Positions 4,511 to 56,400 of a stretch of 64,000 bases of DNA are shown one piece after another. The notes beneath the pieces are model-generated. The model was not told the DNA's origin. It saw only the letters and a program-made list of their open reading frames with translations, and did not search any database. How positions within the stretch are numbered: the first letter of the stretch is position 1; each line of letters begins with the position of its first letter. Origin of the DNA: Euborellia annulipes (lineage: Eukaryota; Arthropoda; Insecta; Dermaptera; Anisolabididae); contig JAKCPI010005596.1 in the NCBI GenBank assembly GCA_023213315.1, positions 36,289 to 100,288 on the forward strand. Reading direction: 5' to 3'. A program made the translations under genes and the position numbers.

Positions 4511-4541
4511 GACGTTTCGGTCTCGATAGAGGCATCTTCAG
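4511..4541 (-). ncRNA. Hammerhead ribozyme relic
   Basis: The minus strand carries CUGAAGA, an imperfect stem II (GCCUC...GAGAC), GAAA and CGUC, but the 5' side of stem I does not pair with the 3' side. A partial inverted copy of the stem lies at 4557-4577, giving the usual fold-back arrangement. Confidence 0.5.
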
Positions 4542-4589
4542 GCGTCAAAAAAGTTGGCCTCTATCGAGACCGAATGCTTCTGCAAATAT

Positions 4590-5900: not shown

Positions 5901-5929
5901 GTTATAGGAATATTTTTTTTTGAATTTTA

Positions 5930-6564
5930 GGCAGGCCACACACCAAGGAAACATGAAAAGTGAAATGTGAAACGAGAAACATGAAACACGTTTCATAAAA
6001 TAAGAACACATTGCCGTAAATGAGAATGCGCACATCAGCGAAATATGTTTCAAGTGACGTCATAGCGAAGCAAATCCTGGAGAAACGTGTTTACATGAAA
6101 TAGGTTATGTTCTATATTTTTGTTTCTTGTTACTCGTTTCTCGCAGGCAATAATAAAATAACTCCCAAAGCCAGTCTAAAATTTGTATCCTTTTTAATTA
6201 TCTGAGGCCCGACAAGGGAAACTAACCCACTAAATGTCTGTACAGACATTCTATAAAAAGACTGAATTTTGTCCGGATGCTCACTTAATTCTTTGACACT
6301 ATATAAGAACCATGTTTAAGATTTATGTGGTTATACGGATGTAGCCAGTAACGTCGTTTCTTTCGTTTTGATTTATTTTTGTGTTTTGATAATAATAATG
6401 TGGTTCTACGTCGTCATCGGTGTCCAGTGCTAACTGAAACAAATTAATTTAATTTGATTTTGGTTTGTGCATCGATGAAACACAAACTTTCTGTTTCGTA
6501 TTTCATATTTCATGTTTCAGATTTCATATTTCACGTTTCATGTTTCCTTGGTGTGTGGCTTGGC
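5930..6564. mobile_element. Harbinger-like MITE (635 bp)
   Basis: Ends GGCAGGCCACACACCAAGG and, at the right, CCTTGGTGTGTGGCTTGGC, followed inward by AAACATGAAA-type repeats. Flanked by TTA (5927-5929, 6565-6567), a TWA target duplication as in Harbinger. No transposase frame. Confidence 0.75.
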
Positions 6565-8073: not shown

Positions 8074-8117
8074 CACTTCTGATGATGACAAGGAATTGTC
8101 GAAATACGTATCAAGTG
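8074..8117 (+). ncRNA. Hammerhead ribozyme, intact consensus
   Basis: Order: stem I 5' CACUU, core CUGAUGA, stem II GACAA-GGAA-UUGUC (perfect), GAAA, stem III as the palindrome AUACGUAU, cleavage C in UAUC, stem I 3' AAGUG. Every conserved core base is present. Short palindromic stem III is typical of the variants associated with Penelope-like elements, known to act as dimers. Activity is inferred. Confidence 0.75.
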
Positions 8118-10370: not shown

Positions 10371-10484
10371 AAAATGAATATTAAATTAAATTCCTCTCTT
10401 TACTTTTGGACTATCTTGCTATATATTTAAGACAAATAGTAGATATTATAGGAAAAATAACGTGATAATAAGTAATAAACTCAC

Positions 10485-10801: not shown

Positions 10802-10802
10802 A

Positions 10803-10933
10803 TTTATTTAACAAAAATTAAGCAATAATGATTATAAACAATATTAATTAATTGCATTATTATTAATTAGGTAATAATGGTTTATTATTACCACATTCAC
10901 CCCCGCCTTAATCTCGAACGTAATCGGTTAGAT
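10803..10933 (-). repeat. Inverted copy of the element's own 3' end
   Basis: 131 nt that are the reverse complement of 14166-14191 joined to 15148-15252: the last codons of pol and its stop, the polypurine tract, and the first 93 bp of the LTR. It occupies the place where PBS, leader and early gag should be. Because it lacks the 953-bp MITE present in the right-hand copy, it records the sequence before that MITE arrived. Confidence 0.9.
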
Positions 10934-21482: not shown

Positions 21483-24400
21483 CTGAAATAATAAATAAAG
21501 TAATTTTTAGTCATTTCAAAAATTAAAGAATCATTATTAAATAAATAATTGAAGAGTGAGAATTTTTTTTTAAATATCATTTGAACCTCAGAGTTCCAAA
21601 TATTATATTATAGTCAAATATATGATCTTATGTTATTACAAGAAAAGTACACATATCGATTATTCATCAATTATCTTAAAAAATAACCGATTATTAAAAA
21701 AAAAATCGATATTTTCGGGTAATATACGTTGAGGTGAGACTCGTATGCTAAAAAAAAGGTCAAATGATTTTCAAAAAAAGAAAATTTTACAAAAAAGGGT
21801 GGGGGGGGGGGGGGGGGAAATGTAAATTTTACAAAATAATTTTCGTTTATTTAAAAAAAAAAGTCAAATGATTTTCGTGAGAGGGAAAAATGGAAGTTTT
21901 ACCAGAGAAAAAATGCGTAATAGGGCCCATATATAAGATGCCTCTTTGAATGCATTCATTATAATGTTTGTGAAAGAAAACGCTCAATTTTCAGCGATTT
22001 TTCATTAAATATAAGGTAATATTTCCAAATATTTCGGAGATCTATTGGCTCTCCTTCAGTGGATTTCATCTCATTCACCATGTACCATCAAGAGAAAAAA
22101 TATTGAACAATATGGCGGCTACCTGGCATTTGAGCCTTATGGTAGGTAGCCGCCATATTATTTGATTAAAATTTAGCGGTTTCTCTCACTACGCGAGCAA
22201 ATGCATCAAATTTATTCTTGCTCACTGTTTTGAAATTTTCGCCTTCGGCGATCAATTGCAAAATTTTTTAAGTTTCAAATTTCCCTCTCCCACTCCACTT
22301 CCTGTAACTCTAGCCAATCAGCGAGAGAACAGGAACATACACACAGGGTCAGGAAGTCAGCGGCTAGCGCTTCTTATATAGTATTGATAATGATAATAGG
22401 CAAAAGCAAGCACCGAAATTTCAACGAAAATCACTGACGCTTGGTGATGCGAGTGGTATAAAGGTATAGCAGCTTCGACTAGGGTAACTCGTGGTCGTCA
22501 TCCACGTACTCACTATAAGTGAGCCCCTGAGTTAGAATCCATCACTTGTAAACTGCTTGCTTAGCTTAGCTTAGGCGGAACATTTTTGGGCCGACGAGAT
22601 TCATCACACTTTTACAAAATATATTTATTTTATAAAGGCTGAGCAATATTTCAAATACTGGAATTTCGTATTTCAAAGTTCTAAAATATCGACGCTCTCA
22701 GTAGAATAGTGCCTAACTCCACTTTTTTTTTCGAAATTTGTTGAAAAATATCATTCTCCTTATGCCCTGAACTGGGTAAGAGCGTATTTCAAAATTTTCA
22801 GTTCGAAAAGATGCCGCACGAAAAGTGTTTAGCATTGGCTCTAACAGAGACAATGAAATGTTTTTTGGCTCTCCTGAAAAATAAACAAAAATGGAGTTAG
22901 GCACTTTGCTAATTAGAACGTCGATATATATTTTGTATTTTAAATATTAATACTTTTTTAAAAGTATTTATATTTAAAATATTTAGATCAGAGTATTTTT
23001 TCCGAGTCAATATTTCAACTTTCTTTTTTTAAATTTTGTAGAACGTAATATCCAATTTAACAGACATTATTATAGTCAGTGTCATATGCATCTGTAAATA
23101 TGTGAAATTGTCCCAAGAATTTAGTGGCGACAGGCTATCTGCCATAGTATTTTAAATACTTAAAAAAAACGGTATTTTGTATTTCAAATAGTTAGTATTT
23201 TATCCTGCCCTATCATAATAATAATAACCCATTATGTTTCAATTTTTCACCCAAAAAAAATGCCTATAGATGGTCTAAATCTAGTATGTGGATATATACT
23301 CGTAATTTGCGGCCCGCGGAATTATGATGCTTTTCCAAAGTGGACCGCAAGATCATTTGGGTTGGCTACCCTTGGCTTAGACTATAATATTGAAATAGGC
23401 ATTTAAATTCACATTTTTTGTTCTGATAGCATCAGAAACTTTGCCGAGAAATATTGAAATAAATTGACCTGAAAAAATACAGCCTTTTTATTTCCGTAAT
23501 TGTCTTCCTCCAAATTTTGATAGATCTTGAATAATTTATGAATTTACTAATGATAAGATTCAATTTCAAAAAAGATTATTGGTATCCCAGTTAGCACAGT
23601 GTTATGTACGTACATAAGACGCACAATTCGTCTTATGTACGTACATAAGACGTACTGTGCTATCTGGGATGATTTCAAATCTTAAACTGAAATGTAAAAT
23701 ATAAATTAATTTTTTTATGACAACAGATTCTGTTACAACTCTGCGTCTATTTTCTTTTAATATTTTATCTATTTATCTCTTGTTTGCAGACCACACCTAT
23801 TGCAAAACATAAGTAAATGAGTGAGGGGATGTACAATTGACAAATATGACTAGAATGGCAACCAGGAAAGAAATCAGACAAAAATTTAATCAATCTTTAT
23901 CCAATTTTTTAATTTCGATTGCCGACGTTTCGGACGCAATTCGCGCCCTTCCTCAGGACAATCGGTAGTCAATAAAATACAGTTTGTCTGATTTCTTTCC
24001 TGGCTGCCATTCTAGTCTAATTTGTATTAGTAATTGACATGCAAAGTTTGAAAAGAATTATTTAAATATAAATCGTTAATCACCAGCTTATTTAAAAAAG
24101 AACCAAGTAGAAACAAACATTCAAGTTACTTCTCCTTCTTCTATTTACAAAAATAAATAAATAACTTTAGGTAATAAAGCAGAAATATTCTCTCTATAAA
24201 GAAGCACACACATTCAAACAAAGACAACGAAAATAGGATTTTTTTAAACAAGGGAATGGAAAAAAAGAGTTATTAACTTAAGGATCTGATTTTTTTTTGG
24301 TTTGGATTAAAATTCACAAGACAAGAAGAATTTAGGATTTGGATTGAGATCCAAATTCTCTCTTAAAATTCTAAATCCTTTTTCAAAGGCATCTATTTAG

Positions 24401-27400
24401 TTCTGGGTGACAGTATCTCTGCTTCCAAAAAAAAAAAATTAAATTTCTAATTCGACAAATAAATCTAAACTAAATATTGTACCGTTTTTTGTATTTAAAA
24501 AAAAAAGTTAGAAACCAATTCCATGTTAATAAAAAAAAAAGTTCAAAAGAGGTAATGCCATTAGTAGGATTGACATTTGCAAATGTCAGGTCCCCAGGGA
24601 ATTCATTTGAGGCCTTGTAAAATATTTCCCATTTTATTATTATAAAAAAAATAATAGAATAAGAACTAATCCTCTCCAGGGTTCCAATCGATTGGATTTA
24701 TATTCTCCGTAACAAAACGAATTATGGCATTTAGCCAAAAGTAGAAAAAGCAGGGATTTACTTAATTAAAGGCGCTCATTATAACTAATATTAAAATTAT
24801 TTTAGAATTACTTTGAGAGTAATCTAAATTTTTTGAATTTTTCGCATCCGTTGTATTAATGATTTGTATAAAAAATATACTAAAGTTTTTTAATGTAATT
24901 TAATATTTAAATATCAATAAGATTTTTTCTTGGACGTACTCATGATTGACAAATTATAATTACCAATCATAACATACTGGTGAGTCAGTTTATAAGTAAA
25001 TATACTTGTCGATAATTATTTATTCCAAAAAAATGAAGACTAGGGTCTTTCAGACGCATGGGCAGAGTGAATAAACTCTGATGTTTATATTGAATTTACG
25101 TTAGTTTACTTCCTAATATCAATTTTGTTTCTTCTTTCTCGTCCATTGTATTTTTAAAATAGGTATTCAGATAATATCGATGCGTGGAATGAAGTCTGAC
25201 AAGGAAAATAATAAAAAACAAATTTATTCTGTCGACGTTTGAACGCCCGTCGCGCTCTTCCTCGGGACAGTCTAAGTGTCAAATGTTACAGATGGTAGTG
25301 ACTAGATCAGTGGTTCCCAACCAGTGTGCCACGAGATATTTTAGGTAAAAAAAAAGTCGGAAAAAATAAAGTTTTGCTAAAAAAAAGGCAAACGATTTAA
25401 ACGAATTGAGCCGGAAGCTGCAAAAATTTCGTTCCCCTAAAAAAAAAAGGTAAAATGATTTTCACAGAAGTGGAAAAAAAAAATTTCAGGTGTAATGTTA
25501 TTCCCAACGCACCTTTGGGGTGCCGTGGACTTCAAAAGGTTTGAAAAAACACTGGACTAGATAATCGGTTGACATCATTAAACAATTTTAACAAACAGTA
25601 ACAATGTATTTGGTGAAATGAATTGATAATGATCTTAATATCATACACGGCATGTTTTTAACAGTAAGGTCATTGTACAGTGAGGAACAATATTAAATCC
25701 CTCCCATGCGTTTTCTACTTGTGATTATTTCATTGTTTTTAAAAAATATATATATATTTTTTTAGAGGAAACTTTCATTGTTCAAACTTAGAAAATTTCC
25801 AATAAAGATTTTCATTTTCTTTTATAAAAACAATGAAATAATTACAAGTAGAAAACGCATGAGTGGGACTTAATATTGACCCTCACTGTACAAGTAACCT
25901 TACTATTAAACACATGCCGTATATGATATTAAGATCATTATTAATTCATTTCACCAATTACTTTCTTTAATGTTTGTTAAAATTGTGTAATGATGTCAAC
26001 CGACTATCTAGTCACTATCATCTGTAAAATTTGACACTTAGACTGTCCTGAGGAAGAGCGCGACGGGCGCTCGAAACTTTGACAGAATAAATTTGTTTTT
26101 TATTTTCCTTGGCTGACTCCATTCCACGCATCTATATTTAATACTCACAGCCAGTATAATAATTAAGTATTCAGATATTTCCAGTTAGGTATTCAGATAT
26201 TTCCAGACTTATTAGGTCTCATTTTCATTAAATTTTTCTCTTTCTTGGTTGTTTTTTAGTTAATTGCCTTTTTGTCATAAAATAAGGATTGGAGGTAATT
26301 TAAAGGAGAGTTGGAATGTTGTCTTCTACAAACGAAATTAAAAACAAAAACTGATTAGAATTTAATTTATAAATAAAACATTCAAACTAGTGTAGGTATT
26401 AATTTTTATTTGTATCTACTCAATGTTAGTATGCGATTCAATTATCAGAAGACTATGAAAGAATAGAAGAAGAAGAAGACTAGAAGGAGTAGTCGAAGGA
26501 GGATAGAGAATCCTGAGAATCAAGACTGCATGCTGCTGGTGGTAAAGGTGTTGGTCCAGCTGAGATGCTGCTCGGTCCACTCAAGCTGTCCTCGTTCGTC
26601 CACCTAAGAGTAAGCGACGGCGCCGATGCGCCCTGCTCAGGCACATCGGCACAACCTCTCTCAAGAACATCACTCACTCTCTTGCCAAATGTTACAAAAA
26701 TAAATTTTATTTTGAAAAACCGATTGGATATAAAAAAGCGCAAGGAAATATAATGAAGATTCTTCTTTTTATCTATTTTTTAAGCATATTGTAGCTTATA
26801 CTGTAAAATCGAAAGAAGATTTATTTTTTTGAAACTTAATTGGTCGGCCATTACGCGTGCAGCTCACTTTCAAGGGATGTAAATAATTATCATATTATAT
26901 TATTATTATCACAATATTCAAATAGTTTTATAAAAAAAAACCAAGCAGTTTCATTTACTGTGGTGCAAAAAAGTGGAACACTTTGTCTTCTTGAAGACCC
27001 TCTTCTAATGTACCTTAATGAGACTCTAATTTAAGAAACATTTAATATGAAATATCTTATACATTTCTGAGTAAATTTAACACAAATACAAATCATTTTA
27101 ATCAATTTAATACAATAAAATAAAAAAAGAAAAAATTATTTAAACTGCAGAATAATATGTCGATTTTTAATTTGAGGGACAAATCAACATAATCTCGTAT
27201 GTTTTGTTGGATATTAATTAAAAATTTTGTTTTTATAAGAATTTCCAATAAAATAGAGAAAAACTGAAATGGAAAAATTATTTTAAAATTTTAGAAATTT
27301 GGCGTTAATAAAAAAAATTTCGTGTCTTTGTTTTATTTCAATTGAAATTATTTATTAAAATGATATGGATTTGTGTTAAATTTATTTAGAAATGTATAAG

Positions 27401-30400
27401 ATATTTCCATATTAAATGTTTAATAAATTACAGTATCATTTAGATAGATTAGAACAGTTCTTTATAAGAGACAAAGTGTTCTACTTTTTTTGCACCTCAG
27501 TGTATATAAAAATTTACGAATATATTCAATGTTAATTTGAAAGGTATACAAGGAAGGAAGCAGGAGCAGCCAAAAATTAAAGCCTCCGATTTTATTACAA
27601 TTAATGAGACGTTTCGAGAAAACTTTATTTTCTCATCATTAGTCTTTCAAATTGTATCTGTCCAGGAGTTGCTAAAAGGGCACAATACTTTTATTATGTA
27701 TGTATTATATTGAGAATCTCACTGAACAAGTCAATGAATAACTCGACATATTTGTTGTTTGTCGACATATACAGTATATATATCTAAATATTTGTATATA
27801 TGACATTGCTAGGCTTTTTTTTATAAAATTAAAAGAAAGTTGTTAAAAAAATATATATACACCTCTACGTCTGCTTTAAAATGATCAACGGCGGTGCTTT
27901 ATTTATTTATTTTTTTTGGCCATTCATTTCTATCTAGTTTAATATACCAGAATAACTCGAACCAATCCGACCAAACAAAATAATAAAAAATTTTATTTCT
28001 AAATCGGTTTTTCATAAAAAGAGAAAGAATTTGAAAGAATATGATATGTAAAAATAAGTAGAAAAAAAAAAGGAAATGTTAATTAAAAAATAAAAAAAAA
28101 AAAAATTACTAAGAATAAGGATAGGAGAAGGAAGTTAATTTATTAAAATTAAAATAACAATTATAAAGTGAAAAAAGAAAATAAAAAAAAAAAACCCGAA
28201 AAATAAAGAGTTGAAAACAATTTAAAAAAAAATTCTCTATAATTTTTTTTTTATAAAAAAAAATCAATATAGAGTATTTTTTTAATTTGTTTTCATTCTC
28301 TTTGTTAAACATTCAAACCATTTGTTAAATTAGATGGCATTACAAGAACATGGAAAAAATGCGGCGAGAGGATACTGACTCCTTGGAATTAGCTTCGAGA
28401 CTGCGTCGTCGGAGATCCTCGAGGGTCACGTTGTTGGCCTGTTCCCAGAGAAGTCGTTCCTTTTCATAAGCACGTCGCTTCTCTTCTAATTCTTTCACTT
28501 GAGCCTCGAGCGCCTTTCGCATCGCCTCGTGGCGTCGTTGGAGCTGGACATATTTAAATTCAATAGTAAGGAATGGAGATATCAATTAAATAACGATATT
28601 TTTATACTAAATTCCGCAAGTTTTTGGTCAAAATCAATCAATCAGGTAATTTTTAAATTGAGTATAATCGATTAAAGATTGTTAGTATGTAAATTTTGCT
28701 TTTACTCTTTGTGTAATCCAAAGGATTCCGTTGGCACTAGTTGAAACATTCTTAAATTTAATTATGTTATCATCTAATTATAAATAAATAACACAGGTCA
28801 ACAAATTTTTTTTTTTTTTTGATTCTCTTCTAATGCTGGAATTCTGATTCTAGACGCCGAAAATCACTTAAATTTCCATTTTTTCTTTTAAAGTTTGCTT
28901 GAGGGGGTGTTTTTGCATCCCCCTGAAAGAAACGGAAATTTCATATGCAGAAGCCAGACCCAAAAATCGTGTTAACACGAGGTAAAGTTTCAAAAAGATT
29001 TTATCTCTCTTTTGCAGTTTTTGTCTGTACAGTCGGCTCCACAAGTGCTCGAGAGTAGAGCCTTGAACTTAGGCAACAGAAATGCTTAGCTGGTGGAAGT
29101 GTTGTTTTAATTCATATGCTGATTCAGTCGAGATTTTTATCAAATTAAATTGACTTTGCTGTGTTGTTTGAATTCCTTTCTGTTGCATAAAAAAATGATT
29201 TATTTATTTTAAAAATATTGGTTCGGTTGACTAAGCTGAAGACTCCAATCTCAAGCAAATCAGACACTTGTGGCTCCGGCAGTATTTATTATTTTCAATA
29301 AAGAAAGTTTTTTTATAGGGGATTAATAATTATCTAGGGCAGATGGATTTCACATTTGCTTGCTTTTGCTGGCAAGGGTAAAAAATTAAAAAAAATGTTC
29401 CTAAAAAAGCGAAATTCTCCTCATATACTGGGTTAACGATTCGGTTATTATTGCTGACAAGGGAGGGTCAAAAACAGCCAAAAATTTGCTTACATATTAG
29501 TTGAATTTATATTATAAGCCACCTTTGAATCTCTTAAATGTACCGTGAATTTATTTTAATTTAGAGATTATATTTATTTTAATTTAGAAGAAAGAATGGG
29601 TTGTCTATTTTTTATCTAAATTTAATAATTATTCTTTTTGATTGTGGCTATGGATTTTTAATAAAGGTGTGTAGAGGCAGAGTTAGTCAAGATGGAGTAT
29701 AATAAATGCACGGAGAGTTTTCGGCTATTTGGTAAAAGATTCTTGGCTGCCTCTGCCTTTATACATCCATTATACGAATTTTAATCAATTTAAGAATGTA
29801 TATTTTATTAAAAAAAAAGTAATAATAATTACTTTTTTTAGTATAACCAAGTGGGGTAAAAATCTATTTTGGCCTCGACAGTCATTTCATACATCTGGTA
29901 TAAATTTTTATGCGAAAAGTTTGACAAACTTTTAAACAGACCACGGATCTAATTCAATTTATTTTTATATGCTCGTTGAGAGAAAAATATTCTCAATAAT
30001 AAATTCTCTTTTTCACGAATTGAATGAATTTTTCCTCTCTATTCTTTATTTAATGAATATATGAATCCTGAAGAAACGAAAGATTAAATAAAAAAAAAAA
30101 TCAAAAAGTTTGCGCTTTTTTCTCTTCTTTTTCGCTAATAAATTACAAATTAAATCGAGATTTATGAAAGTATATATAAATAAAAATATAATTCATTTGA
30201 CTATGAATTATTTCATATAATTATTAAAAAAAGTTTTAAATATCCAACACCATAATAAAAACCAAGTACCAATACCAAAGTAAGATAAAATAAAAAAAAC
30301 AATTTAAACTCACATCGGCTTCGCTGTCTTTTAATTTTTGTTTCTTCTCCCTGACTTTCATCTCGAACACTTGTTCCATTTCAGATTCCATTTTCTTCAT

Positions 30401-33400: not shown

Positions 33401-35411
33401 AGAATTGAGAATTGAATTTGGTAGAGAGTGTTTGAATGTTTTTTGTTGATGTCGGGTGAAATTGTAGATATGGGAGCGTTTGTATTAGTTAGTATATTTT
33501 TATAATTTTTATTTTAATTAAGAAAATAAATAAACTCACTTGTTACTGATTCGTGTGGGTTTTCCATCTGAACCTAAACCGGCGAGTTTTCGGCACCGGA
33601 AATTCTCGTAGTGGACGTTATTAGTGACATCTTTCAAGTCTTGCAGATGAGTCCGTATTAGCATATTGCGAAGTGCAATAAAATCACAATGCTCGAGATT
33701 TTCCACTGAAAAATAAATTAAATAATAAATTAAATTTTCAAATAATAAGAGAAGTATTAGTCAACTATAATTAGTGGATTATTTCTTTTGAAGCAAGATT
33801 TATAAAAGATAATACTTATTTTAAATATGGTTTAACGCGAGATAATATAAACAAATTAACATTGAACTTTGTTTAAACTATCCGTTTATCCTAAGCATTC
33901 AATGTTAAAACCATCACTTTAACGATGAAGTTAGCTTATACAGTGTTATGCAAAGAAATTTGAAATAATTAGGAAAAAAATATAAATTAATGGCAGGGAG
34001 GATTGCAGCCAAGCAGGGGAGTCTCTCTCGAATAAAATTTCAATAAAAGAAAATGTTTGGCCTTTAATTAGATAAGGCCATCTTCAGTTCTTATGAGAAT
34101 ATTGGAAAACTCAATGAATACACCATCGAGATGGAGATAGAGTCGTTATATAAAAACATATACAAAATTAATAAAATATGTATATAGATGTAGAATTAGT
34201 AAAAGAATTAGATTTTCGGTTTAACTGTGGTTTATTTGTAAAAATTACAACGTTTCGGCCACTCATTCTGTGGCCTTCTTCAGGTACAATTCAGCCAAGA
34301 TTACAAAGGTTGTTACATCTGTGACCACAGTTAAACCGAAAATCTAATTCTTTTACTAATGATAACAACTGTGAAAGCCTAAACTCCAAAAAATAGATGT
34401 AGAATGCTCATTAGTATATATGGCCAAGTCTCAAATCTATAGATTTATTTAAATTTATATGTATAATTTTGTATATGTTTTTATATAACAAATCTATCTG
34501 CAACTCAAAGGTTATTCATTGAGTTTGCCAATATTCCCATAAGAAGTGAAGATGGCCTTATCTAATTAAAGCCGAAACGTTTTCTTTTATTGAGATTTTC
34601 ATTCGATAGAGACTCTCCTGCCTGGCTGCAATCCTCTCTTCCATTAATCAATCGTTGGCCAACCACTTCTCACATCAACATTGTTGAAACTTGTATAATT
34701 TCAAACATGAAAAAAATAGACAGTCCTTGACTGAAGTAATTTTTAAAAAGGGTTGAAAAGACAGACAGACAGACATGTTATGACAGATATGTTACGATAA
34801 CCACTTTTTTGGATTCAGGGGACCTCAAAACGTGTATATCCAACAAAATCTCGAAATCAAATTTTTGACATGAAACCCAATACTTTCTCTATATATTTAT
34901 ATTACATATATACATAGGTAAGAGAAAGTAAGAAGTGTGAGTGTTAAAAAAAAAAATGGACAAAAATAAAAATTTTATTTAATTTCTTGACTGGCAGGCA
35001 AGACATCCTTCAGATAATAATCTCTGATACTTAATACTTCAATTTGTGATATATTTTTTTAATTTGTCAGAAATTTACAAGATAATATCAAAGTAGTCTA
35101 TATCCTCTTTAAGAACACTTGCAAACAGAGAGTGCTTTGAAAAACAAGCGGTTACTTTGATCTATCCATTTCCAACGTGAAATTGGATATAGGAAAACGG
35201 AGAGGAAGGAATTTATTACCTTCGGCGATACCCCAAGGGTATCTACGTCCACGAACTTTCTTCCCGTCGACTTCGATGACGGTGTTTGAGCCGACGACGG
35301 CGAATGGCACTCGGTCTCTTAACGCTCGTTGTGTTTTGCCCTCTTCGTCGTTCTCGTCCGGGTCAGGAAACTCGTAGATGTTGATTTTGTGCTGAGATAT
35401 TTCGTTTAAAA

Positions 35412-35442
<31 letters not shown>

Positions 35443-38400
35443 TAAATAAATAATAAAAAATCTTACACTTAGTAATCTGAGACACCTATTGTACATTGGA
35501 GGGGATGAAAATGTTTTAGTATTAGAAGGATCTGATTGATAGATTTCAATACTCTCCCCATATATTTCCTAAGGGGAAAATTATAACTTCAACAATGAAT
35601 AACTCAGAATGTATATATATAATAGCGGAGTGTCCAACTGACGGACATCTGCAAATTATAAATATCAAGTGGTAAAGCCCGCCCTCTTTCACTTAAAGTT
35701 TTAAATTTCCCTCTTCCGCCCCAATTCCTGTAACTCTAGCCAATCAGCGAGAGAACAGGCACAAAAACACAGAGACAGGAAGTCAACGGCTTGCGATTTA
35801 TATATAAATTATATAAAATATATAAATATTGAAATAATGAATAATGATTTTTTTTTTTTTTTAAAACATTCACACTTTTTTCTCATTCACACTCACACTC
35901 ACACTCACACACACATTCACACTGTCTTTTCGGCAGCTCAGGCCATATAAGACATTTACGATAACCGTTATTTATGAATTTATATATATTTGGGTCCAGG
36001 CATTTTTATTTAAGCCATCTGGTATCCAGATGGCTTAAATAAAATCATCGGACTGCCTGGGGTCCGAACCCGCGACGTTTGGTATATGAGGTTAGCACGC
36101 TAACCTCTACACCACGCCCCGTGGGCATGAATAATGATAATGATATTGAAATAGATTAATATAAATTACTTCTAGATATTTCACAATTCACGGTATTTCC
36201 TCATTAGTAAATCTTCATCCATGTCTTGATCATAATTCGAATGTTATGATTCTAATTATTTTGGAAATGGGGCAGATACCAGATCCACTCATGAGGAGGA
36301 AATATCTGGAAGTAATTTATACCATCCAGGGCCGGCTCTACATGTAAGCAAAAGATGCGTCGCTTCGGTGCGCTTCCGTATAAGGGCACCATAATTTACG
36401 CAATATTTAACCCCCTGAACCCCCTTGCTCGCCTACGGCGAGCAAATTCATCTGATTTATTCTTGCATTGTTTGGAAATTTGTAGTGAAGATGTAAGGCG
36501 TTAATTACTGTTCCGCATCGGGGCGCCAAAATCCTAGAGCCGGCACTGATACCATCTAATCAGCGGCGTAACTAGCCTTTGAGGGCGGAGGGGGCGAAGC
36601 TCAACTAGGGCGCCGTTTTTTAAATTGTAATATAATTAATTAAAAGAAATCTATTAATTTTTTGGATGCCCCTGGGCTATATCTTAGATACCCTAGGGCA
36701 GTGGTTTCCAAACTTTATGTTACCACGCCTCCCTTAAAAATATTTATTCTTATGACGCCCCCCCCCTCCCATTTTATAAAATAATACAAAAACAAAAATT
36801 AAAAATATAAATTTATATAAAAATATTTTTATTTATTTATTCTTATTTATATTAAAACTAGCAATTATTTGGAAAATTGGTCCTGGGGGTCAATATTCGC
36901 GCCTCCCCTTAGACTAGTCCGCGCCTCACAGTTTGGAACACGCTGGTATAAAGGTAATTTATGGCTGGTGGAATTTGTATCAGGAATGAGAGTTAGAAGA
37001 AAACGCAACCAGAATTTTTTCTTTAAAAATATATTTTAACAGCTTACGTTTCGACCTTGGTAAAAGCCATCCTCGGATGACCACTAACAGCTCCGAGGAT
37101 GGCTTTGACCAAAGCCGAAACGTCAGCTGTTAAAATATATTTTTAAAGAAAAAATTCTGGTTTCGTTTTTTCTAACTTCCATTCCTGAAGAAAAATATTT
37201 TTCTCAAATCTTATTTTCACGCCCTAGGGGGGTGCCTAACTTAAATATAAAATTTCAACCTCTCAGCTCAATTCCTTCATGCTTTAAATTGAACCCAAAC
37301 AGACACACAGACAGAACATGTCTCGAAAACCATTTTTTTGGATTCAGGGGACCTCAAAATGTATATATCCATCAAAGTCTAGACATCGAATTTTTGACAT
37401 GAATCCAATACTTCTCTCTATATATATGGATATTAACTTATACATATAGGTAAGAGAAAGTAAACATTCAAATCCTAATTGAGATTAGTTCTAAATACAA
37501 AAAGATGCGGTAACTCACCCCAGTAAAATTCTAAGTGGACTAATCATATCTTACTTTTCTACCTAATGAAAAAAATCCTTACAAAATTCTGCAAGGGATT
37601 CGATGGGTTCCTAAGTTACCCAATGTTATTATTATCTGTTTAAGAGAGTTTCGAAATTCTCAAAAATTAATTCCGCCCCAGTAATAAGAAATTTTAGAAT
37701 GATATTAAAATGTTTCTACCCCACTATGCTATTTGCTAAATATTGAATATAAATTTTAACTCAAACGGAATGCACTTATTTTTAGTAAAAGTATTAAAAA
37801 ACATTTTAGGGTATGGGACATTAACCCCCATGTTTAATGCCTTCATACCTCCCCCCCCCCCCCCTTTAAGGAAATGCGAGCCTTCACCGCGAAATTACTC
37901 TCAAAATAATTTGAATAGATTTATAAATAATTATTTTAATTTTTATTTTATTAAAAGAATCGTTTTTCTCAGTCAAATTATTTGTTTCTATATCATTTTT
38001 TTTTTCAACGATAAAATGCATAATAATTACCTTAAATAAGACACTCAAGAGGGTGTGCTGGTTGACGGTGAGGTCAGGGTGGGTTACACTATATTAATTA
38101 TTCACTTTGATTCACTTTAAACACAAAAAAAAGAGCAGCGCCTGCATCTCGGCCACGCGCTCGACTGAACGAGAGATAGACTTGTCTCTCTCTGTTTGTA
38201 TAGGAATAAAACAGATGAAAATAACAATTCCCTTTTTATTAAAAGTAAAAAAATACCTTTTGCTCTAATCTAACTATATTTAAAACTGGAAAAGAATGTC
38301 AACAAATGATTTAGAATATTCCAAGGCCCTTCTTAAATAATCAATCCTTCATCCCCCCCCCTAATCAAAATAATAACGCTATTTTTTGAATGTTTTCTAT

Positions 38401-41400
38401 TTATTTGGCTTCGATTTAGCTAAAATAAATTTAAAAAACATTTTTTTCAATTTTTCAACCCCTTATCCAATCCTAATAAATAAAATAATTAACAATGCTA
38501 TCGCCTTCGGCGAGCTTAGCGTCTAGTCAGAAAAAAAATTAAAACCCTGAAAAACTTCCCTGGGTCCGCCTTTGGGTTTTACACATAGTATAATTTTCTA
38601 GAATGTCTAACTTTAGGCCAGTGGTTTATGTTTTAACGCCTCTCTTAAAAATATTTAATCGTATGCCGCCCCCTACCCCACACATTTAAAAAAATAATAC
38701 AAAAACAAAAAATTTTAATACTAAAAAATATAAATTTATATAAAAATATTTTTTTAATTTATTCATATTTATTATTTTAATTAAAAACTCAGTTCCAGAA
38801 TCTTCTAAATTATTTTATTATATTATTTATAAAACTAGCAATCATTTGGAAAATTGATCTTGGTGGCCAATATTCGCGCCTTCCCTGAGACTAGTCCGCG
38901 CCTCCCTAGGGAGGCGCGCCTCACAGTTTGGAAAACGCTGCCCTAGGGCGTCTATGTCGTTATTGAGGGGCGCCAAAGGCTTGATCCGCCTGGGGCGGAG
39001 GGGGCGAGTGCCACCCTTCGCCCCCACCTACAGTAGTTACGCTACTGCATCTAATAAATATTGAACGGCTGGGAGGCCTTGCATTTATTCTCATTATTAA
39101 AATGTTTTTTAAAAAGCGCTGCAACTTCTTAAATTTTTTTAAAATTTATTAAAAAATAATTAACAAATTTGAATAAATTTTAGAAATATCAAATAAAATT
39201 CAATGAATCAAATTCTAAACTTACTAAAATCTTTAATCAAAATATAATTACAGTAGAATTTAGACTAATAAATTAATTAAAAAAAACGTACAAAATACTT
39301 ATTTTTATTTTATTATTTTTTTTTTTTTCAAACTCTTGGCCGAAGGACAAATATCCGCCATTCTCCGCTAAAATGACGTCCCTGATTATACTAGTCAAAT
39401 GAATGGTAAAGAGGAATTTTCAACCAATTAAGGAGCCTTAAAATTTCATTTCATTTGGGTTTAAATGAAATATCGCCATCATCGGTCTTATAATGCGCAG
39501 CCTGCCTATTTACCTATATGTTATCTCTATCTCTATAGCAGTTGGAAAATAAATTCAGTATCGAATTATGTATGGTCGTAAATCCGCACATAGAATCGAT
39601 TCCAATTAGATACAAATAAAGCAAAACCCAAAAATAAAATTTGTTTATTAATGATAACTGAGAGAGTTTCAACTTCAAAATCGATATAACCCTTTCCAAT
39701 TAGAAAAATAAAAATAAAGAACCTGTTTTTTGAAATGCTGAATCTCGTCGGGAGTCATAGTGTCCGCTTTGGCGATTACGGGAACGATGTTGACTTTATC
39801 GTGAAGTCGCTGCATAAATTCGACATCGAGAGGTTTCAGGCCATGTCCGCTTGGGGCAATGAAATAAAGACAGCAATGCACTCGAGAGTCGATGAGTTGT
39901 TTACGGGTAACGCGGGATTCCCCGTTCAGGTACTCCTCGTATTTCGATTCGATGTACTCCATCACAGGTTGCCAACTGCAATCAATAAACAACAAGCTTA
40001 TTAGAAAAAAAATAAATAATATATTATGAAAAAGTATAAAACTACTCGGGAATAATAAATTATCATCTCAACTCCATCTTGAGAGAATTTGTCCGAGAAC
40101 GAATATATATTTATAAGTAATTTTTTGTTTAAAGATGAGATCAAATATTAGTACAGATATTCATTAAAAAATTCGTATTTGAAAATGTATCTTTTATTAT
40201 TGATACAGGTGAAGTTGTATTTTATAGATAAAGATACAAATTTATTTTAGAATCTTAAAATATTAAACTTAGGATTCTCTTATTAGAAATGATGAAAAAA
40301 AATTTTGGTAACTTGTCTACATTTTTTCTTAATAAATGATTCAAAAATCAAATGAAATGAATTGTTTTTTTGGAGTGAATGAAAAAAATGTTATTAAATC
40401 CCTTGAGGGGTTAAAAAAATAAATGAAAACATTCATTAAAATAATTGTTTCAAAGTGTTAAGAAAAAAAAATAGAACAACAGAATTCTTTTCATGTTCTG
40501 TTAATTAATTGATTTATATTAAAATGTTTGTTTCACAAAAGTGAAACTGATTAGAATTAATTAGGAAGCCTAGGTTAAAAAAGAACAGACGCGATTGGCT
40601 GGCTAACTAACAGGTCAGGTCTTATGTTTAGTTAATAGAATTGGCACTTTCGAAAGCGAAAGTGTAATTATTTAATTTGTTATTAGCCAGTTTGAAAATG
40701 TGGCGCACACAAATCGCCGTCAGTTGCGTGGGTCTATTTTTAAAAGGGGCCATCTGGACTTCGGAGGGGTTAGAGATGTTTGGATCATACTTCATTAATT
40801 ACTAAGCAACAGGGAATTTGATTTTTATTAAAAACAATTCCAAATATGTCGATTTATTCTTGGAAATAAAATTTCTTAATCATGATTATACTAAATATTC
40901 AATTACTTGCTAAATAAATATGTCATCAATTTTCCCTTTCTTTTAACGAAAGTATTTCTTTAACTTTGCCCACCAACCGTTGGTTGGGTAGGTAAAGTTA
41001 ATGTAATCATGAAAAAAAAAATCGAAATTGAACTGAAGCTGCCAAAATGTGTTTTGAGGTACCCAGAATTCATTTAAAGTATAGTATAGTTTTTAAAATG
41101 AAGTGTTTGCATACATAAACTAGAAGTAAAGACCAAGAACTGAAAAGCTCTTAGTAAACATCATTATGGGGGGGGGGGGGTAATATTTTTTTCTTAAATA
41201 AAATGTAATTTCTTCCGAGTAAAATTATTTATAGACAGGAAAAGGAGCAGATGCAGCAAAAAAAAAAAACAAAAGCCTCCGATTTAATACAATTTAATGA
41301 GACGTTTCGGGTGAATTTCATCTACCCATCTTCAGTCCTTCCTACATAAGAAATACATATGATGTTACAAATCAGTTAGAATATGTATTGCCCTATTGAC

Positions 41401-50400: not shown

Positions 50401-53400
50401 TTTAAATTTATTAATACAGTAGTCTTGCTAATCCGAACTTCGATATCCAGGTATACCGTCTAATCCGACTTATTGAAAAGCCACTTCCTAAATTTTTTCC
50501 AAATAAATACAAAATAATTATTATACTGGCGTTTATCCACCTTTAATATTGTTACATATTTGAGATAAGAAAAACCAGTTGAAAACAAAATTAGTCACGC
50601 TGACGTATGCCTTCGCGTAGAGGAGCAAATGCATCAAATTTATTCTTGCTCACTGAAAATTTTGCAATTGCTCGCCTCCCTCTCTAAGGGTCAGTGGCTA
50701 ACGCTTTATATTATAAAAACAATAAAATAGAAAGAGTAAATAAAATATTAAATTTTGCAATAAGCTTATATTAAATATTTCGGGTAATCCGGCATTTTCA
50801 GGATCCAGCATAAGGCGGCTCCCGTTTAGGCTGTATTAGCAAGACTACTGTAATTATTTTGGCCAAAATTTTTTGAAATTTTAATAAACAACATAGTAAT
50901 TTGAGTACATCAAGTTTTGCAACCAACAAAAAGCCTAAAACCAATAAAAAAAAAAAAAAATCTAACTTTAAAATAGAGAAAAGTCTCGCCTAGGTCAATC
51001 ATCAAAATGGAGAATCGAGTTTAGTTGTTTGTTTTTTTTTTGGCTAGTTAAAATAATATGGATTTTCGGTCCTTTAGTTGGAGAAAATTCAATTTCAATA
51101 TATATTTTCATTAATTATTATTATAAATATCTTAGCCAAAGATTAAAAGGTTTATAAAGTCAATTGATATGCCAAAAGTTTGAAAACGATTAATCAACTT
51201 TTTAAGGCACTCATGAAAAGAGTCAACTTAAATTAAAAGAGAACAAAGAACTAATTCTTAAAAAAAAAAAAAAATATATGGGTTGATATTAAATAAAAGA
51301 GGGAGTTGTTAAATCAATCTAAAGAGAATGTACATTGAAAAACTGAAAATAATGAGAAAGTAATATTAATTAAACGACCAGTGAAAACAGGCGAGGTGGT
51401 GGAAATTGGGTTTTTAAGTGGGCGATAATTTAATTAATTAATAAAATCAAAAATTATTATTTTAATCAATATAGGCTACCAAAGGTGGTTACTTGTCTTG
51501 GTGTGACAAGCGCAGGGGTGCTGTGCAACCAGTCACACCAGATTTTTAAATAAAACTTTTGTGATCTTTCATAGGCTACTTGTTCTTAATCCATTAAAAC
51601 ACGAGCTATATGAATGAATCTTAATTCTATTTTACAAAACATTTAAAATTTTTAAAAGATAATCGGATCAATTTTCGTCAATTTTTATGATAAAATTTTT
51701 TGTTAATTTTCAATTCTTTTTTTTATTGAGAGAAAAAACTAATCTCTATTATTTTATTGAATTAATGATAGAGTTATCCGGTCGAATGAACTTTTATCTT
51801 TTGGAATGTTTTAAAAAATTTATCTGTTTAATTAGAAACTTCAAAAAGGCTTTTTTTTTTTAAATTGAATTTAATCACAATGCATCATCGGTTTAACATG
51901 AAAATTCTTAGCTCAGATGATAGGCTAAGTAATAATATTAAAAAAAAAGTCAATATGACTAACTATTGAGGGAGATAAAAAGTAAACCTGACGAGTATAG
52001 TAAACAATAACAAGTGCTAAAATAAACACAAAAAAATTGGGACAATCTATGCTCATGGATGAAAGATATAAAAAATGATCAATAGAGAAAAAATTAGAAA
52101 ATAGAAAATATAAGTACTGGAGCAGCAAAAGCAAAGCCTGTGGATGTGAAAATGTCGAAGGAGACGCTTCCGACGACATTTTATTGTACAGAAGTTTCGG
52201 ACAAAATTTTATTTGTATAGAAGTTAGTTAAATAAAATTTTCTCCGAAACGTCTCAATGGGCATTTTGTTTGCTTTTGCTGCTCCAGTTCTTGCTCTATT
52301 TTCAAACAACAACAAATTCTCACCAAATAATATACACAATTTCCAGTTATTTACATGGGCGTAACTAGGAGTGCCAGGGGGGGGGGGCATCCCAGGAGGC
52401 TCGTGGCCCCCAGAAAGCTCCCCGACCCAAGAAAAATTGAGTCAATATGGGGCCTTCCAGGCCCCCAGAAGGATGGCTGGTCCCATGGCCCCCCCAGTCA
52501 AATTTCCTAGTTACGCCCATGGCCATTTATATCTTCAATAAGAGAAATTATTATTATATATAATAATATTATAAGAGGAATAAATAGACCTAAATATAAA
52601 ATATTGTTAATGGAGTGTGCTTTGTTTTTACTCAAACTGAATTGTCTTAAATAAAACAATATTATCAATACAGACAAATGCCCACGGGGCGTGGTGTAGA
52701 GGTTAGCGTGCTAACCTCATATACCAAACGTCGCGGGTTCGAACCCCAGGCAGTCCGATGATTTTATTTAAGCCATCTGGATACCAGATGGCTTAAATAA
52801 AAATGCCTGGACCCTAATATATATAAATTCATAAATAACGGTTATCGTAAATGTCTTATATGGCCTGAGCTGCCGAAAAGACAGTGTGAATGTGTGTGAG
52901 TGTGAATGAGAAAAAAGTGTGAATGTTTAAAAAAAAAAAAAAAAAAAAAATACAGACAAATTAATTAGGATCCTTTAGGAAAAAAAAATTATAGGGAAGA
53001 GAGTGCCTAGGAAGGTGGACGAACTTATTAAAAATAATTTTTTAATTATATAAATCCTTTACTTTTTTTAAATTTTTTCTAAATATATTATCTTAAATCT
53101 AAATACTGTATATTATCTTAAATCTAAATAATTTTTTCTTGGTCTTCTTTTTAATATGGTCTACAAAAATTAGGCCACCCAAGAAATAAATAAATAATTG
53201 ATAGAATTATTAAAAAATCTCTTTAAAAAAATAGAAATGTAAATATAATACGTATAATTAATAAGTTCACCCACTGAAGCTTTCTAAATTTTTTTGTCGA
53301 GTAGTGTTGAAAGGATGCTAAATGATTTGTCAGCATTGGTGCTATTTTTATGTAAGACAATCCTGACTCACTAATGAGTGCAAAAAACGCACACTCCAGT

Positions 53401-56400
53401 AACAATTTTTTGTGATTTTATTTAATGGTATTTTATAAGTTTATGTTCATCTTAATTCTTTCATTTTTGAAATGTACAGTGAGCGCCACAATTAAGTCCC
53501 CACCTGATAGCTAGAGCCTTAAGTATATGGTGTAGTGAAATAATTTAATGACCGAAAAGGTAAAAAGTACAATCTGGTACAGCTGATTTTATTTTACCTT
53601 TTCAAATTTAAAATTATTTCACCATAAACCATATACTATACCATATTTTTAAGGCTCTAGCTATCAGGTGGGGACTTAATTGTGGAGCTCACTGTACATG
53701 AATGTGAATTACTATATCTTAAAGAAGGTTGCGAAGTGTGACCGAAACATCTACCATCATTACTATTTTTAATCTTTAGGAAAAATAAATAAAAAATTGA
53801 GTAGTTTTGTTTTTAAAATTATCTGTGTGTGTGAATACCATATCTTAAAAAAAAAAAACGCAACGAGAGAAATTTTGGAAGCTTATCTTAAACTAAAATT
53901 TTAGATCTGTTTCACTTTTTGGATTAAATCATTCAATTTTAAGAGGTACTTCACCTAATACGTTTTGTTAAAATTTTGAAATTTTTCATATATTTATATT
54001 AACACTTTTTCAATAGAAAACTATGGGTGATTTTTTAATCAAGTGAACGATACCTAATTAGAGAAACGTTGCCTCGGGAGGTAAATAAATCACTTTATAA
54101 TTAATTATTTCTGTCTTCTTTAAGTTGTCATTCATAAAGAAGTGACATTTGAAACGGGATAGATAAATAAATCACGTAAAAATAAATAAATAAAAGGCTC
54201 CAGCAAAACATTTTGCAAACCAAATATGGAGAAATGGTATTCCTTTTGATTCCAAATAATTTTTTTTTTTAAGATTATGTCTATAAGAAGAATTAAAAAA
54301 AAAAGCTGTGATTCAATTAATCGAGTTTTTTTCATTCTATGTTCAAGAATGAAGTCATTATTTGAACATTTTTGGATATTTATCTTCAAATTGAAGATTA
54401 TATAATCTACAGATGTTCATTATTTATAACAGGAAGGGGACATCGCTATACTCAGGTAAACTTTATAATGTATAAAAGTGTAAAGTTTGTTCAGGTACAC
54501 TTTATAAGCTATAAAAGTATAAAGTTTTGCCTGAGTTATGTCAATGGCCCTTCTATTATAGTATGAATTTTAAAAGCTGTACATTATATTAATGAACGTT
54601 AAATGGAGTGAAAGGGATGTTTCGAACATTTCAAATTTATTATTTTATTTAATAAAAGGGAGAAGTAAAAAAAAAATAATCTATGCGATTCTATTGTTTT
54701 GTGGAGTTTGTGAAATTAAAAAAAAATATTTATTCACCCTTTGAATTATAAAATTTCATAACTCTATACGTATTCTATTAGGCGTCATCTGATGGGGTAA
54801 TATCTATTTCAAATAAAAAAGAATCGACCGTAATCAAGTGGGATTCCTAAAAGCGGATGATTTTTTTAAAATAAAAAAAAGAAGGATGTGATAGGGTATT
54901 GTAAAAATTAGCCAGTATAAACAAATCGGAGAGAAATTGAATGCGAATCCCAAAATCATATCAATAAATTCTAATCATAATTTTGGCTAAAATCAACCAG
55001 CAATCTGGGTTTATTTACAATATTCAAACCTATTATTTCAAAAATTTGTAATGAAATACAAATACGTCTCTCCTAATAGAGGCAATGGCTCTAAATACAG
55101 CCAAATGGCTTTAAGAGCTATTTTAGAAATGCATCTTAACTCCACGGGGCGAATAAAAAATTATAAAGAAAATAAAATAAATATATTGGAGTAGTGGCTG
55201 AATGTATAATTTATAATGAAGAGAGCTAAACGCAGTTATAGAAAAAAAAAATTTATTTTGCTTTATTGAACAACACGACGTTTCGGCCGATTCTTCCGGC
55301 TTTCATCATGAGTTTTATTTGCCTTGAGCTTAGAGGGGCTCTAGGCTCAGGGATGGTCAATCTTGAATCATAATTCATGTCAACTGATGAATGTTCGGAG
55401 CTATATCAGAAACTGCCAAGTCTTTCAATGCTCGGTGAAAATAAAACACATATCCTGATGAATTCCGGAAGAATCGGAGAGATTGTTGTTGTTCAATAAA
55501 GCAAAATAAAGTTTTGTTTTCTTTATTTTGCTAATAAATATATTTTGTAAAAGTGTGATGAACCTCGCGGGTCACAAAAATGCTCAAGGTGGTCCGCATT
55601 GGCCACCCCTGCTCTAAACTTTATAGTTTATGGTATTTATACCATATAAGGCCAAATAATGGCCAAAGAATTGAAAATTTTATAGTAAAAACAGATCAAT
55701 TTGATTTTTATAAATTTTATGATAATGATAAAAAAAATCTGTTTTACTAACTACAGAAAAAAATTAATTTAAAATACTGTAATAAGTAGGAACCGACCGA
55801 ATATTCGGTTTCGGTTACGGTTTCGGCCAAAAATCCTGGTTTCGGCCGTGGTTTCGGTTTCGGCCAAAAACTAGCCAAACCTTTCGGCCGGCCGAAACCT
55901 GAGTTTGAAAAGATGAGATGAGACGAGACTCGCACACAAAAAAAAAAAGGTTAAATGATTTCTACGTGAAGGAGAAAAAAATTTTCCGCCAAGTTAAAAA
56001 GGGGCGGAAAAAATTTAGTCTCCCTAAAAAAAAAAAAGGTAAAATGATTTTCACGGTAGGAGAGAAAAAAATTTCCGCAGGGCAGAAAAATTTCAAAAAA
56101 AAAAAAAAAAAAAAAAAAAATGATATGGATTTTCTATAGGAAATACAAGTTTCTGTTTCGGTTACGGTTTCGGCCGAAACTAAGATCGAGGCCGAATATT
56201 CGGTTTCTGCAGAAAATCTCGTTTCGGTCGGACCCTAGTAATAAGTGAAATATTTTAATTTATATGCCTTGTTTTTGCATAAAAAAAAGAGTTATAGGGC
56301 CTCAACAAACAAAAAACATAGCTGATTGATTTTTTTTCCACTATTTATCATGAAAAGAGATATAAACACTCATCACAATGAAATCTTTTTATTATAAAAT

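What the first reader, a model, noticed from the sequence alone, without database searches (positions are those of the whole stretch)
4511..55520. A swarm of hammerhead ribozymes in small fold-back insertions
About sixteen sites share one layout: CUGANGA, a stem-loop, GAAA, a minimal or palindromic stem III (CGUC, CGUU, AUACGUAU), a cleavage base, and a closing stem I. Stems II and I covary: each unit has different paired sequences (GACAA/UUGUC, GGGCGC/GCGUCC, GAGCGC/GCGCUC, GGCCAC/GUGGCC, GGCUUU/AAAGCC), so this is conserved structure, not one conserved sequence. Hammerheads with very short stem III are known from Penelope-like retroelements and act as dimers. Here they ride on ORF-less elements of about 170-1000 bp that contain their own inverted partial copies. 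That looks like a non-autonomous, ribozyme-carrying family group at high density.
Basis: partly seen in the sequence, partly recalled or inferred. Interest (0 to 1): 0.93.

Follow-up and report, generated by a model that had tools for sequence, protein, structure and literature searches.

The report
Ribozyme-bearing stubs of Penelope retrotransposons
Small fold-back insertions that carry a self-cleaving RNA motif look like truncated, mirror-image copies of a known kind of mobile element (Penelope-like), and they are spread through the whole genome rather than crowded in this one place.

Summary
About 16 hammerhead-like sites can be recognised, 4 strictly intact, the rest in stages of decay. 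Stems I and II covary. All 4 intact window sites and 14 of 14 sampled from the genome carry one extra A/U between the CUGANGA box and stem II. Rfam finds none of them.

The interpretation needs correcting. The sites fit severely 5'-truncated, head-to-head double copies of endonuclease-bearing Penelope-like elements (PLEs); a separate non-autonomous family is not needed. A full PLE arrangement (852-codon frame with RVT_1 and GIY-YIG, direct repeats with hammerheads, inverted copy) occurs in the same genome. Both arms of window element 36980-37188 match, at 84-86%, a stretch 336-443 nt past the ORF of another PLE. Of 22 fold-backs tested, 11 have a target-site duplication of 11-15 bp, and all 11 have a 20-38 nt 'tail' on exactly one end. 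The ribozyme cleavage site lies 54-84 nt from the tail-less end, so even very short insertions tend to keep it.

The window is no local swarm: the core pattern occurs 122,527 times in 903 Mb (control 3,705), one per 7.4 kb, as here. A known kind at remarkable density; the one-tail rule bears on the unsolved PLE integration mechanism.

The parts
23835..24039 (-). Fold-back PLE stub D (arms 23840-23882 / 23983-24025), possible 8-bp TSD AATTGACA; one copy keeps the hammerhead, the inverted copy is only 43 nt
   Evidence: TSD weak (131 of 1000 random; none of 9 bp or more)
23916..23964 (-). Intact minimal hammerhead: 8-bp stem I, CUGAGGA + extra A, 7-bp stem II, GAAA, cg, UC cleavage base
   Evidence: 63.7 bits; it is a member of the model
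25163..26177 (+). Fold-back PLE stub E: TSD GTATTCAGATA (25163-25173 / 26167-26177; the right copy lies in a 22-bp tandem repeat, 26163-26206), arms 25173-25307 / 26006-26138, one-sided tail about 26139-26166, other repeats nested in the middle
   Evidence: (2 of 1000 random)
26043..26085 (+). Hammerhead of the right arm of E (core intact, stem III ACUU)
   Evidence: member of the model
25226..25273 (-). Hammerhead of the left arm of E (CCGAGGA, keeps ACGUC): the two arms have decayed at different positions
   Evidence: 47.3 bits, E 1.5e-12
31202..31430 (-). Fold-back PLE stub F
   Evidence: best flanking repeat only 9 bp
31262..31303 (-). Intact hammerhead with palindromic AUGCGUAU stem III
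8074..8117 (+). Intact hammerhead, same family as F (69% over 156 nt), AUACGUAU stem III; no clear inverted partner
34184..34405 (-). Fold-back PLE stub G: 13-bp TSD ATAGATGTAGAAT, arms 34195-34231 / 34324-34360, 32-nt tail on the right, nested inside 33986-34648
   Evidence: (1 of 1000 random)
34246..34286 (-). Hammerhead of G (short, imperfect stem I)
   Evidence: E 2.6e-7
33986..34648 (.). Older fold-back stub with a decayed hammerhead in each arm (34044-34095-, 34538-34589+), both pointing outward; no TSD found
36980..37188 (.). Fold-back PLE stub H; both arms match L039 (PLE of contig C1099) at 84-86% over 106-108 nt, 336-443 nt past the end of its ORF; no TSD found
37085..37132 (+). Hammerhead with perfect 8-bp and 7-bp stems but CCGAGGA (U4 to C); the same change is in the other arm (37044-37077-) and in L039
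41220..41640 (.). Fold-back PLE stub I/J: 14-bp TSD TAAAATTATTTATA, arms 41230-41384 / 41446-41599, tail about 41600-41626, a decayed hammerhead in each arm (41296-41340-, 41495-41528+) pointing outward
27601..27649 (-). Decayed copy of the I/J family (79% over 78 nt), single
   Evidence: E 0.16
4502..4551 (-). Chimeric/decayed hammerhead remnant at a fold-back junction; stem I absent
   Evidence: E 0.16
55237..55525 (.). Fold-back with decayed hammerhead 55277-55308-; no TSD found
   Evidence: (E 1.7e-6)
53722..53751 (+). Further hammerhead-like remnant found only by the covariance model
   Evidence: E 0.00018
30236..40067 (-). Host gene context: frames with septin-7-like exons at 39675-40067, 35152-35412, 30236-30547; stubs F, G, 33986-34648 and H lie between them

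Best explanation
The sites are minimal type-I hammerhead ribozymes from the 3' end of endonuclease-bearing Penelope-like retroelements. What lies in the window are very short, dead-on-arrival PLE insertions. Reverse transcription starts internally, so that the new copy ends 54-84 nt downstream of the ribozyme cleavage site, or some 20-38 nt further (the tail), and in these copies it ran only some 40-240 nt, so the stubs have no ORF but often keep the hammerhead. A second copy of the same 3' end is made in inverted, head-to-head order, giving a fold-back with ribozymes pointing outward, flanked in half of the cases by a recognisable 11-15 bp target-site duplication and then with a tail on exactly one end. 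Shown: hammerhead structure and covariation, head-to-head order, TSDs, one-sided tail, and a PLE relative of one window family. Inferred: that the other families come from PLEs too; the order of events (first strand from the distal start with tail, then the second copy without tail, by cDNA snap-back or by priming on the other target strand); and that the ribozyme plays no part in insertion. In fold-backs where both copies include the ribozyme it should be buried in the arm duplex and silent.
For: Structure and covariation. Genome-wide: 122,527 core matches against 3,705 for the reversed pattern (a few sites are counted twice). 14 sites with perfect core in the first 198,747 sampled bases against 0 in 5 shuffles, all 14 with the extra nucleotide (T 10, A 4), 12 of 14 with stem III loop CG. 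Strict count 5 in 234,884 bases against a mean of 0.06 in 668 shuffles. Head-to-head: 19 outward, 3 inward, 4 tandem among 26 close pairs of 98 listed places; inverted copy upstream of 7 of 14 sampled sites (these 7 are in 5 elements) against 8 of 120 random positions, downstream of 1 of 14. PLE: 118 GIY-YIG matches among 150 scored of 710 candidates; L034 has inverted copy, direct repeat with hammerhead, 852-codon frame with RVT_1 and GIY-YIG, direct repeat with hammerhead; 7 of 7 PLE loci examined have a hammerhead, 6 by descriptor and L036 by the model; window stub H matches L039. Literature: HHR in PLE pLTRs, inverted pLTR, optional 31-bp tail, 8-10 bp TSD, internal RT start at two sites, HHR mutants still insert (PMC3846280, PMC11167929).
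Against: Only one window family (H) was tied to an ORF-bearing PLE; a truly non-autonomous family among the others is not excluded. 11 of 22 elements show no flanking repeat of 11 bp or more, among them H itself. 8074, 27603 and 53722 have no inverted partner. The five later sample loci (L029-L033, 46,137 bases) hold no site with a perfect core. Fold-backs without any hammerhead are common (104 fold-backs in 298,884 bases, only 21 with even a relaxed core), so fold-back shape alone proves nothing. A general search for a conserved tail hairpin was not above random AT-rich sequence. The RT domain was tested only in L034 and L035.
Confidence: 0.88

Rival explanations
1. MITE-like DNA transposons with terminal inverted repeats that happen to carry hammerheads, moved by a transposase.
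For: Fold-back shape, inverted arms of 37-237 bp, no ORF, high copy number.
Against: Asymmetric ends (tail on one side only in 11 of 11), repeat length 11-15 and not fixed; unequal inner ends of the two arms; match of stub H downstream of a PLE ORF; hammerhead orientation mostly outward.
Confidence: 0.03
2. A non-autonomous, SINE-like or retrozyme-like family group amplified in trans by PLE proteins.
For: Very high copy number; no ORF in the stubs; recurring families such as GGTCGTGATTGGCGACC and GGGCGCGACTGGCGTCC on several contigs; retrozymes co-occur with PLEs (PMC7761336).
Against: Variable inner ends (arms 37-237 nt), as expected of truncation and not of a unit-length element; no hammerhead-bearing tandem array in the window; family H has an ORF-bearing relative.
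Confidence: 0.17
3. Mechanism rival: the two head-to-head copies are made independently, by target-primed reverse transcription on both nicked strands, instead of snap-back of one cDNA.
For: The PLE protein PAc nicks and extends both strands in vitro, with no difference in start site between the strands, and starts at two adjacent sites (PMC11167929). Unequal 5' ends, with spacers of 61-122 nt in 5 of 15 elements.
Against: A tail on exactly one end in 11 of 11 is not expected if each strand picks a start site at random; 10 of 15 spacers are 11-31 nt, hairpin-loop size, against 5.9 expected for independent ends (636 of 20,000 draws reach this).
Confidence: 0.4
4. Chance motifs in AT-rich sequence.
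For: Simple core matches do occur by chance (mean 3.2 per window) and two lie in the Gypsy ORF.
Confidence: 0.01

Closest known systems
Minimal hammerhead ribozymes of Penelope-like elements (Cervera & De la Pena 2014; Lunse et al. 2017; both known here only through citing papers)
   Same: Type I layout, minimal or missing stem III, location in the pLTRs, thousands of dispersed copies in animal genomes (passages of PMC7761336 and PMC6155905).
   Different: Copy density here: 122,527 core matches in 0.9 Gb. The extra A/U after the CUGANGA box (14 of 14 sampled) could not be compared with the two primary papers, which are not held; the description of the PAc ribozyme, whose ORF starts at stem II, is compatible with it.
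EN+ Penelope elements of Adineta vaga and Poseidon PAc of Anolis (PMC3846280, PMC11167929)
   Same: Inverted pLTR at one end, head-to-head order, optional tail of about 31 bp on one end, short variable TSD, internal RT start, RT + GIY-YIG ORF.
   Different: The hammerhead fold-backs examined here are mostly little more than two inverted 3' ends (un-nested ones 166-473 bp), and their flanking repeats are 11-15 bp.
Metazoan non-LTR retrozymes (PMC7229834)
   Same: Type I hammerheads in small ORF-less repeats; axolotl has 126,247 such motifs.
   Different: Retrozymes are tandem repeats of a 150-450 bp unit, with canonical hammerheads; these are single or inverted stubs with minimal hammerheads.

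Membership tests
Type I hammerhead ribozyme | CUGANGA and GAAA boxes, UH cleavage base, stems I and II with covariation | tested here: met
Type I hammerhead ribozyme | Direct junction between A9 and stem II (pair 10.1-11.1; recalled) | tested here: not met
   One extra A/U in 4 of 4 intact window sites and 14 of 14 sampled. An extra core nucleotide is reported for a viroid hammerhead (title of a cited paper seen; details recalled), so this lowers 'canonical', not 'works like a hammerhead'.
Type I hammerhead ribozyme | Self-cleavage | not testable with these tools
   No experiment possible
EN+ Penelope-like element | RT + GIY-YIG ORF in the source element | tested here: inconclusive
   Met for L034. 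L039, which window stub H matches, has the GIY-YIG match and a 564-codon frame, RT not tested. Not tested for the other window families.
EN+ Penelope-like element | Hammerhead in the pLTR / downstream of the ORF | tested here: met
   7 of 7 PLE loci; an eighth locus, L041, was dropped because its GIY-YIG gene looks bacterial
EN+ Penelope-like element | Head-to-head inverted copy, variable TSD, one-sided tail | tested here: met
   11 of 22 fold-backs with TSD, all 11 with one tail; 19 of 26 close pairs outward
Metazoan retrozyme | Tandem repeats of one hammerhead-bearing unit | tested here: not met
   4 tandem against 19 outward among 26 close pairs; none of 30 tandem-repeat rows in the window is a hammerhead array
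TIR DNA transposon (MITE) | Symmetric termini with fixed-length TSD | tested here: not met

The most novel reading that the evidence does not exclude
PLE integration is an ordered two-step reaction: the first strand starts at the distal site (leaving the tail), and the second copy is made from the proximal site or by snap-back of the cDNA, so that every complete insertion has exactly one tail. The 3' end carries a short stem (TGGCTG...CAGCCA, replaced in another family by TTGAAACA...TGTTTCAA) that separates the two start sites. This genome, with some 10^5 hammerhead cores, holds a fossil record large enough to work out the mechanism; and the fold-back product locks most intronic ribozymes into an inactive duplex, which may be why the host tolerates them.
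Probability: 0.35. Interest if true: 0.7.

Novelty: new member of a known kind. Interest (0 to 1): 0.5.

Why it matters
Per megabase this looks like one of the denser hammerhead genomes (about 136 core matches per Mb; axolotl has a similar total of hammerheads, 126,247, in a genome recalled to be some 35 times larger). It suggests why PLE hammerheads are so common: they sit just upstream of the reverse-transcription start, so even a very short dead insertion tends to keep one. The one-tail rule and arm comparison make the unsolved PLE integration mechanism testable from genome sequence alone.

Tried and rejected
Rfam at gathering and permissive thresholds found no hammerhead; this reflects the library, not the sites. 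Plain MAFFT alignment of 8 window sites misaligned the stems (A1, not used). Instead I used 12 hammerheads with a 17-nt stem-loop II (A2), chosen because equal lengths align without gaps: 2 from the window, 7 from the first genome sample, L008, the small fold-back of L034, and one downstream of an ORF-bearing PLE (L037). Two further equal-length sites (second arms at L024:2023-2071 and L034:4336-4384) were left out so as not to count partners twice. Some of the 12 are related families, so the 0 of 500 is not a probability.

A general test for a conserved tail hairpin failed (observed mean 15.9, random 17.4). The specific pair TGGCTG...CAGCCA is found at 7 loci in 252,747 bases, 6 of them downstream of a hammerhead or its remnant, against 1 locus in reverse order; in loci fetched otherwise it occurs in L034 and L035 beside hammerheads and in L032 without one. 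It remains a lead. Reading the inner ends of 17 elements (by eye) I saw none exactly at the ribozyme cleavage site, which speaks against the ribozyme making the 5' ends. MFE folds of single hammerheads were mixed: 5 of 8 had z below -1.7, three were close to shuffles. Host identity was not established; an arachnid was only a hunch, and the searches on it gave nothing. No solved structure matches the PLE ORF by sequence.


Full report
WHAT IS THERE. The window is eukaryotic DNA (about 30% GC). It contains septin-7-like exons on the minus strand (in frames 39675-40067, 35152-35412, 30236-30547), a Gypsy-type polyprotein frame (10877-14191) and a THAP domain (16926-17201). Between them lie hammerhead-like motifs. 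The core pattern occurs 17 times against 3.2 expected. A descriptor that demands both stems, the boxes and a UH cleavage base finds four sites with a perfect core (8074+, 26043+, 31262-, 23916-) and two with one core change (37085+, 19569+); 60 shuffles give none with a perfect core. A relaxed scan gives 9 sites at score 9 or more against 0.35 expected. A covariance model built from 12 hammerheads, two of them from this window, gives 9 window matches at E<=0.01 and 4 more at E<=0.16. With 8074 and 31262, which the model does not cover, and the decayed 37044 copy, the total is about 16, mostly decayed.

STRUCTURE. Stem partners fit within a site and not between sites. In the 12-sequence alignment 88.9% of cells pair, 10 of 12 pairs change on both sides, and shuffles reach the five measures in 0 or 1 of 500; slid structures pair in 29-51%. 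All 4 strictly intact window sites and all 14 sites with perfect core in the first genome sample have exactly one extra nucleotide, T or A, between CUGANGA and stem II; 12 of 14 have the stem III loop CG, that is ACGU. In the window two of the four intact sites have a 6-nt palindromic loop instead. This fits the known minimal hammerheads of Penelope-like elements; the description of the PAc ribozyme (ORF starting at the beginning of stem II; PMC11167929, main text read) is compatible with the extra nucleotide. The two primary papers on PLE hammerheads are not held, so I could not compare the consensus.

THE ELEMENTS. Eight window elements of 166-966 bp are fold-backs around hammerheads or their remnants: D, E, F, G, 33986-34648, H, I/J and 55237-55525. 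Where both arms keep the ribozyme the two point outward. In stub E the two arms have decayed at different core positions. Eleven have one of 11-15 bp; 15 of 1000 random positions do. In all 11 the repeat abuts one arm (gap -8 to 0) and lies 20-38 nt from the other (earlier and narrower searches agree). None has two tails or no tail. The other eleven show no repeat of 11 bp or more. The distance from the cleavage site to the tail-less end is 54-84 nt in 7 window arms. Arm homology reaches 37-237 nt inward; spacers are 11-31 nt in 10 of 15 un-nested elements and 61-122 in five (E and 33986-34648 were set aside because other repeats lie inside them).

GENOME-WIDE. The window's own genome (903 Mb, 25,949 contigs) holds 122,527 matches to CTGANGA-N8..30-CGAAA against 3,705 for the reversed pattern: one per 7.4 kb. 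A few sites count twice. The window has 9 such matches (rows that end in CGAAA), one per 7.1 kb, so it is typical and no local swarm. In the first 198,747 sampled bases 14 sites have a perfect core and at most one mismatch per stem, against 0 in 5 shuffles; the next 46,137 bases have none. With no stem mismatch allowed there are 5 in 234,884 bases against a mean of 0.06 in 668 shuffles. Scaled up this is very roughly 20,000 to 55,000 near-intact hammerheads; the sample is small and was picked by contig number. Of 26 close pairs among 98 listed places, 19 are outward, 3 inward, 4 tandem. An inverted copy lies upstream of 7 of 14 sampled sites (in 5 elements) against 8 of 120 random positions, and downstream of 1 of 14.

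THE SOURCE. A GIY-YIG search of the same genome scored 150 of 710 candidates and kept 118, some in frames of over 800 codons. Reading that list, 9 contigs have a minus/plus pair of matches within about 5 kb, that is head-to-head elements, and I saw no inward pair at that distance. L034 shows a whole arrangement: an inverted copy 1-681 (cut by the contig end), a 668-bp direct repeat 683-1350 with a hammerhead at 1223, an 852-codon frame (1267-3822) with RVT_1 and GIY-YIG, and the second direct repeat 3615-4282 with the same hammerhead at 4155. Its ten listed relatives (best 40% identity) carry PF00078 in 7 and PF26215 in 8 cases. L035 shows RVT_1; its GIY-YIG match comes only. All 7 PLE loci that I examined have a hammerhead, 6 by descriptor (that of L035 with an unusual 8-nt stem III loop) and L036 by the model. 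L041, the eighth locus fetched, looks like a bacterial gene (judged by eye) and was dropped. Both arms of window stub H match L039 at 84-86% over 106-108 nt, 336-443 nt past the end of its ORF. Stub H and that PLE share CCGAGGA, so a template with a changed U4 was still inserted; this agrees with the report that PAc ribozyme mutants insert normally in vitro (PMC11167929).

HOW IT MOST LIKELY WORKS. A PLE protein nicks AT-rich DNA, starts reverse transcription inside its RNA just downstream of the ribozyme, and here fell off soon. The other end of the insertion receives an inverted copy of the same 3' end. The A. vaga study (PMC3846280; passages and two sections read) describes the same head-to-head order, a 31-bp tail on one inverted pLTR and TSDs of 8-10 bp, and proposes self-priming on an antisense template. 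The PAc study shows extension of both target strands and two RT start sites. My data add that the tail is on exactly one end in 11 of 11, and that spacers are mostly of hairpin-loop size (636 of 20,000 random draws as extreme). I favour an ordered reaction with snap-back of the first cDNA (about 0.5) over independent priming on both strands (about 0.4); the two cannot be told apart here.

CONSEQUENCE FOR THE RIBOZYME. When whole elements are folded, 8 of 10 bury the hammerhead in the arm duplex (40-91 kcal/mol to free it), while D and G, whose inverted copy ends before the ribozyme, leave it nearly free at the tip of the hairpin (2.5 and 4.5 kcal/mol). This is a prediction only. F, G, 33986-34648 and H lie between septin exons; the hammerheads of F and G are in the sense of that gene.

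KNOWN OR NEW. Minimal hammerheads in PLEs, dispersed copies by the thousand, inverted pLTRs, tails and TSDs are in print (passages or sections of PMC7761336, PMC6155905, PMC7229834, PMC3846280, PMC11167929). In the listings of searches, and in the parts of papers that I read, I did not see a statement of the one-tail rule or a genome with this density; the library covers open-licence papers only, and most listed papers were not opened. I file the finding as a new member of a known kind.

Noticed in passing
L025 (G000:C18200:2001-12000, contig 87,979 bases): Dense long bacterial-type ORFs; the contig looks like bacterial DNA in this animal assembly. L041 (C21118) likewise. Judged from the sequences by eye, not by a search.
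   Followed up: no
window 43390-43818, 59566-59954; L040:827-1285: A non-hammerhead repeat of about 450 bp with matches in most of the sampled 10-kb stretches; probably a very high-copy short element.
   Followed up: no
window 4817-5895: A 1.1-kb near-perfect palindrome (91%); it has loose core-pattern matches but no site found by the descriptor or the covariance model.
   Followed up: no
window 25555-26013: A 459-bp palindrome (85%) lying inside stub E; it also gives the best sub-threshold Rfam hit (MIR2619, 45.2 bits against a cut-off of 113), which probably reflects only its hairpin shape.
   Followed up: partly
L034:4294-4553; window 37085-37132 and 25226-25273; L039:584: CCGANGA in place of CUGANGA recurs with good stems, in both arms of stubs and downstream of a PLE ORF: possibly a natural core variant worth an activity test.
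   Followed up: partly
sample L009-L033 without L025, and the window: Fold-backs of all kinds make up 9.3% of 298,884 bases (104 loci); 83 of them have no hammerhead-like core even in relaxed form.
   Followed up: partly
the 11 fold-backs with TSD: The tail lies on the right in 10 of 11. Contig strands should be arbitrary, so this is probably chance, but I have no explanation.
   Followed up: no
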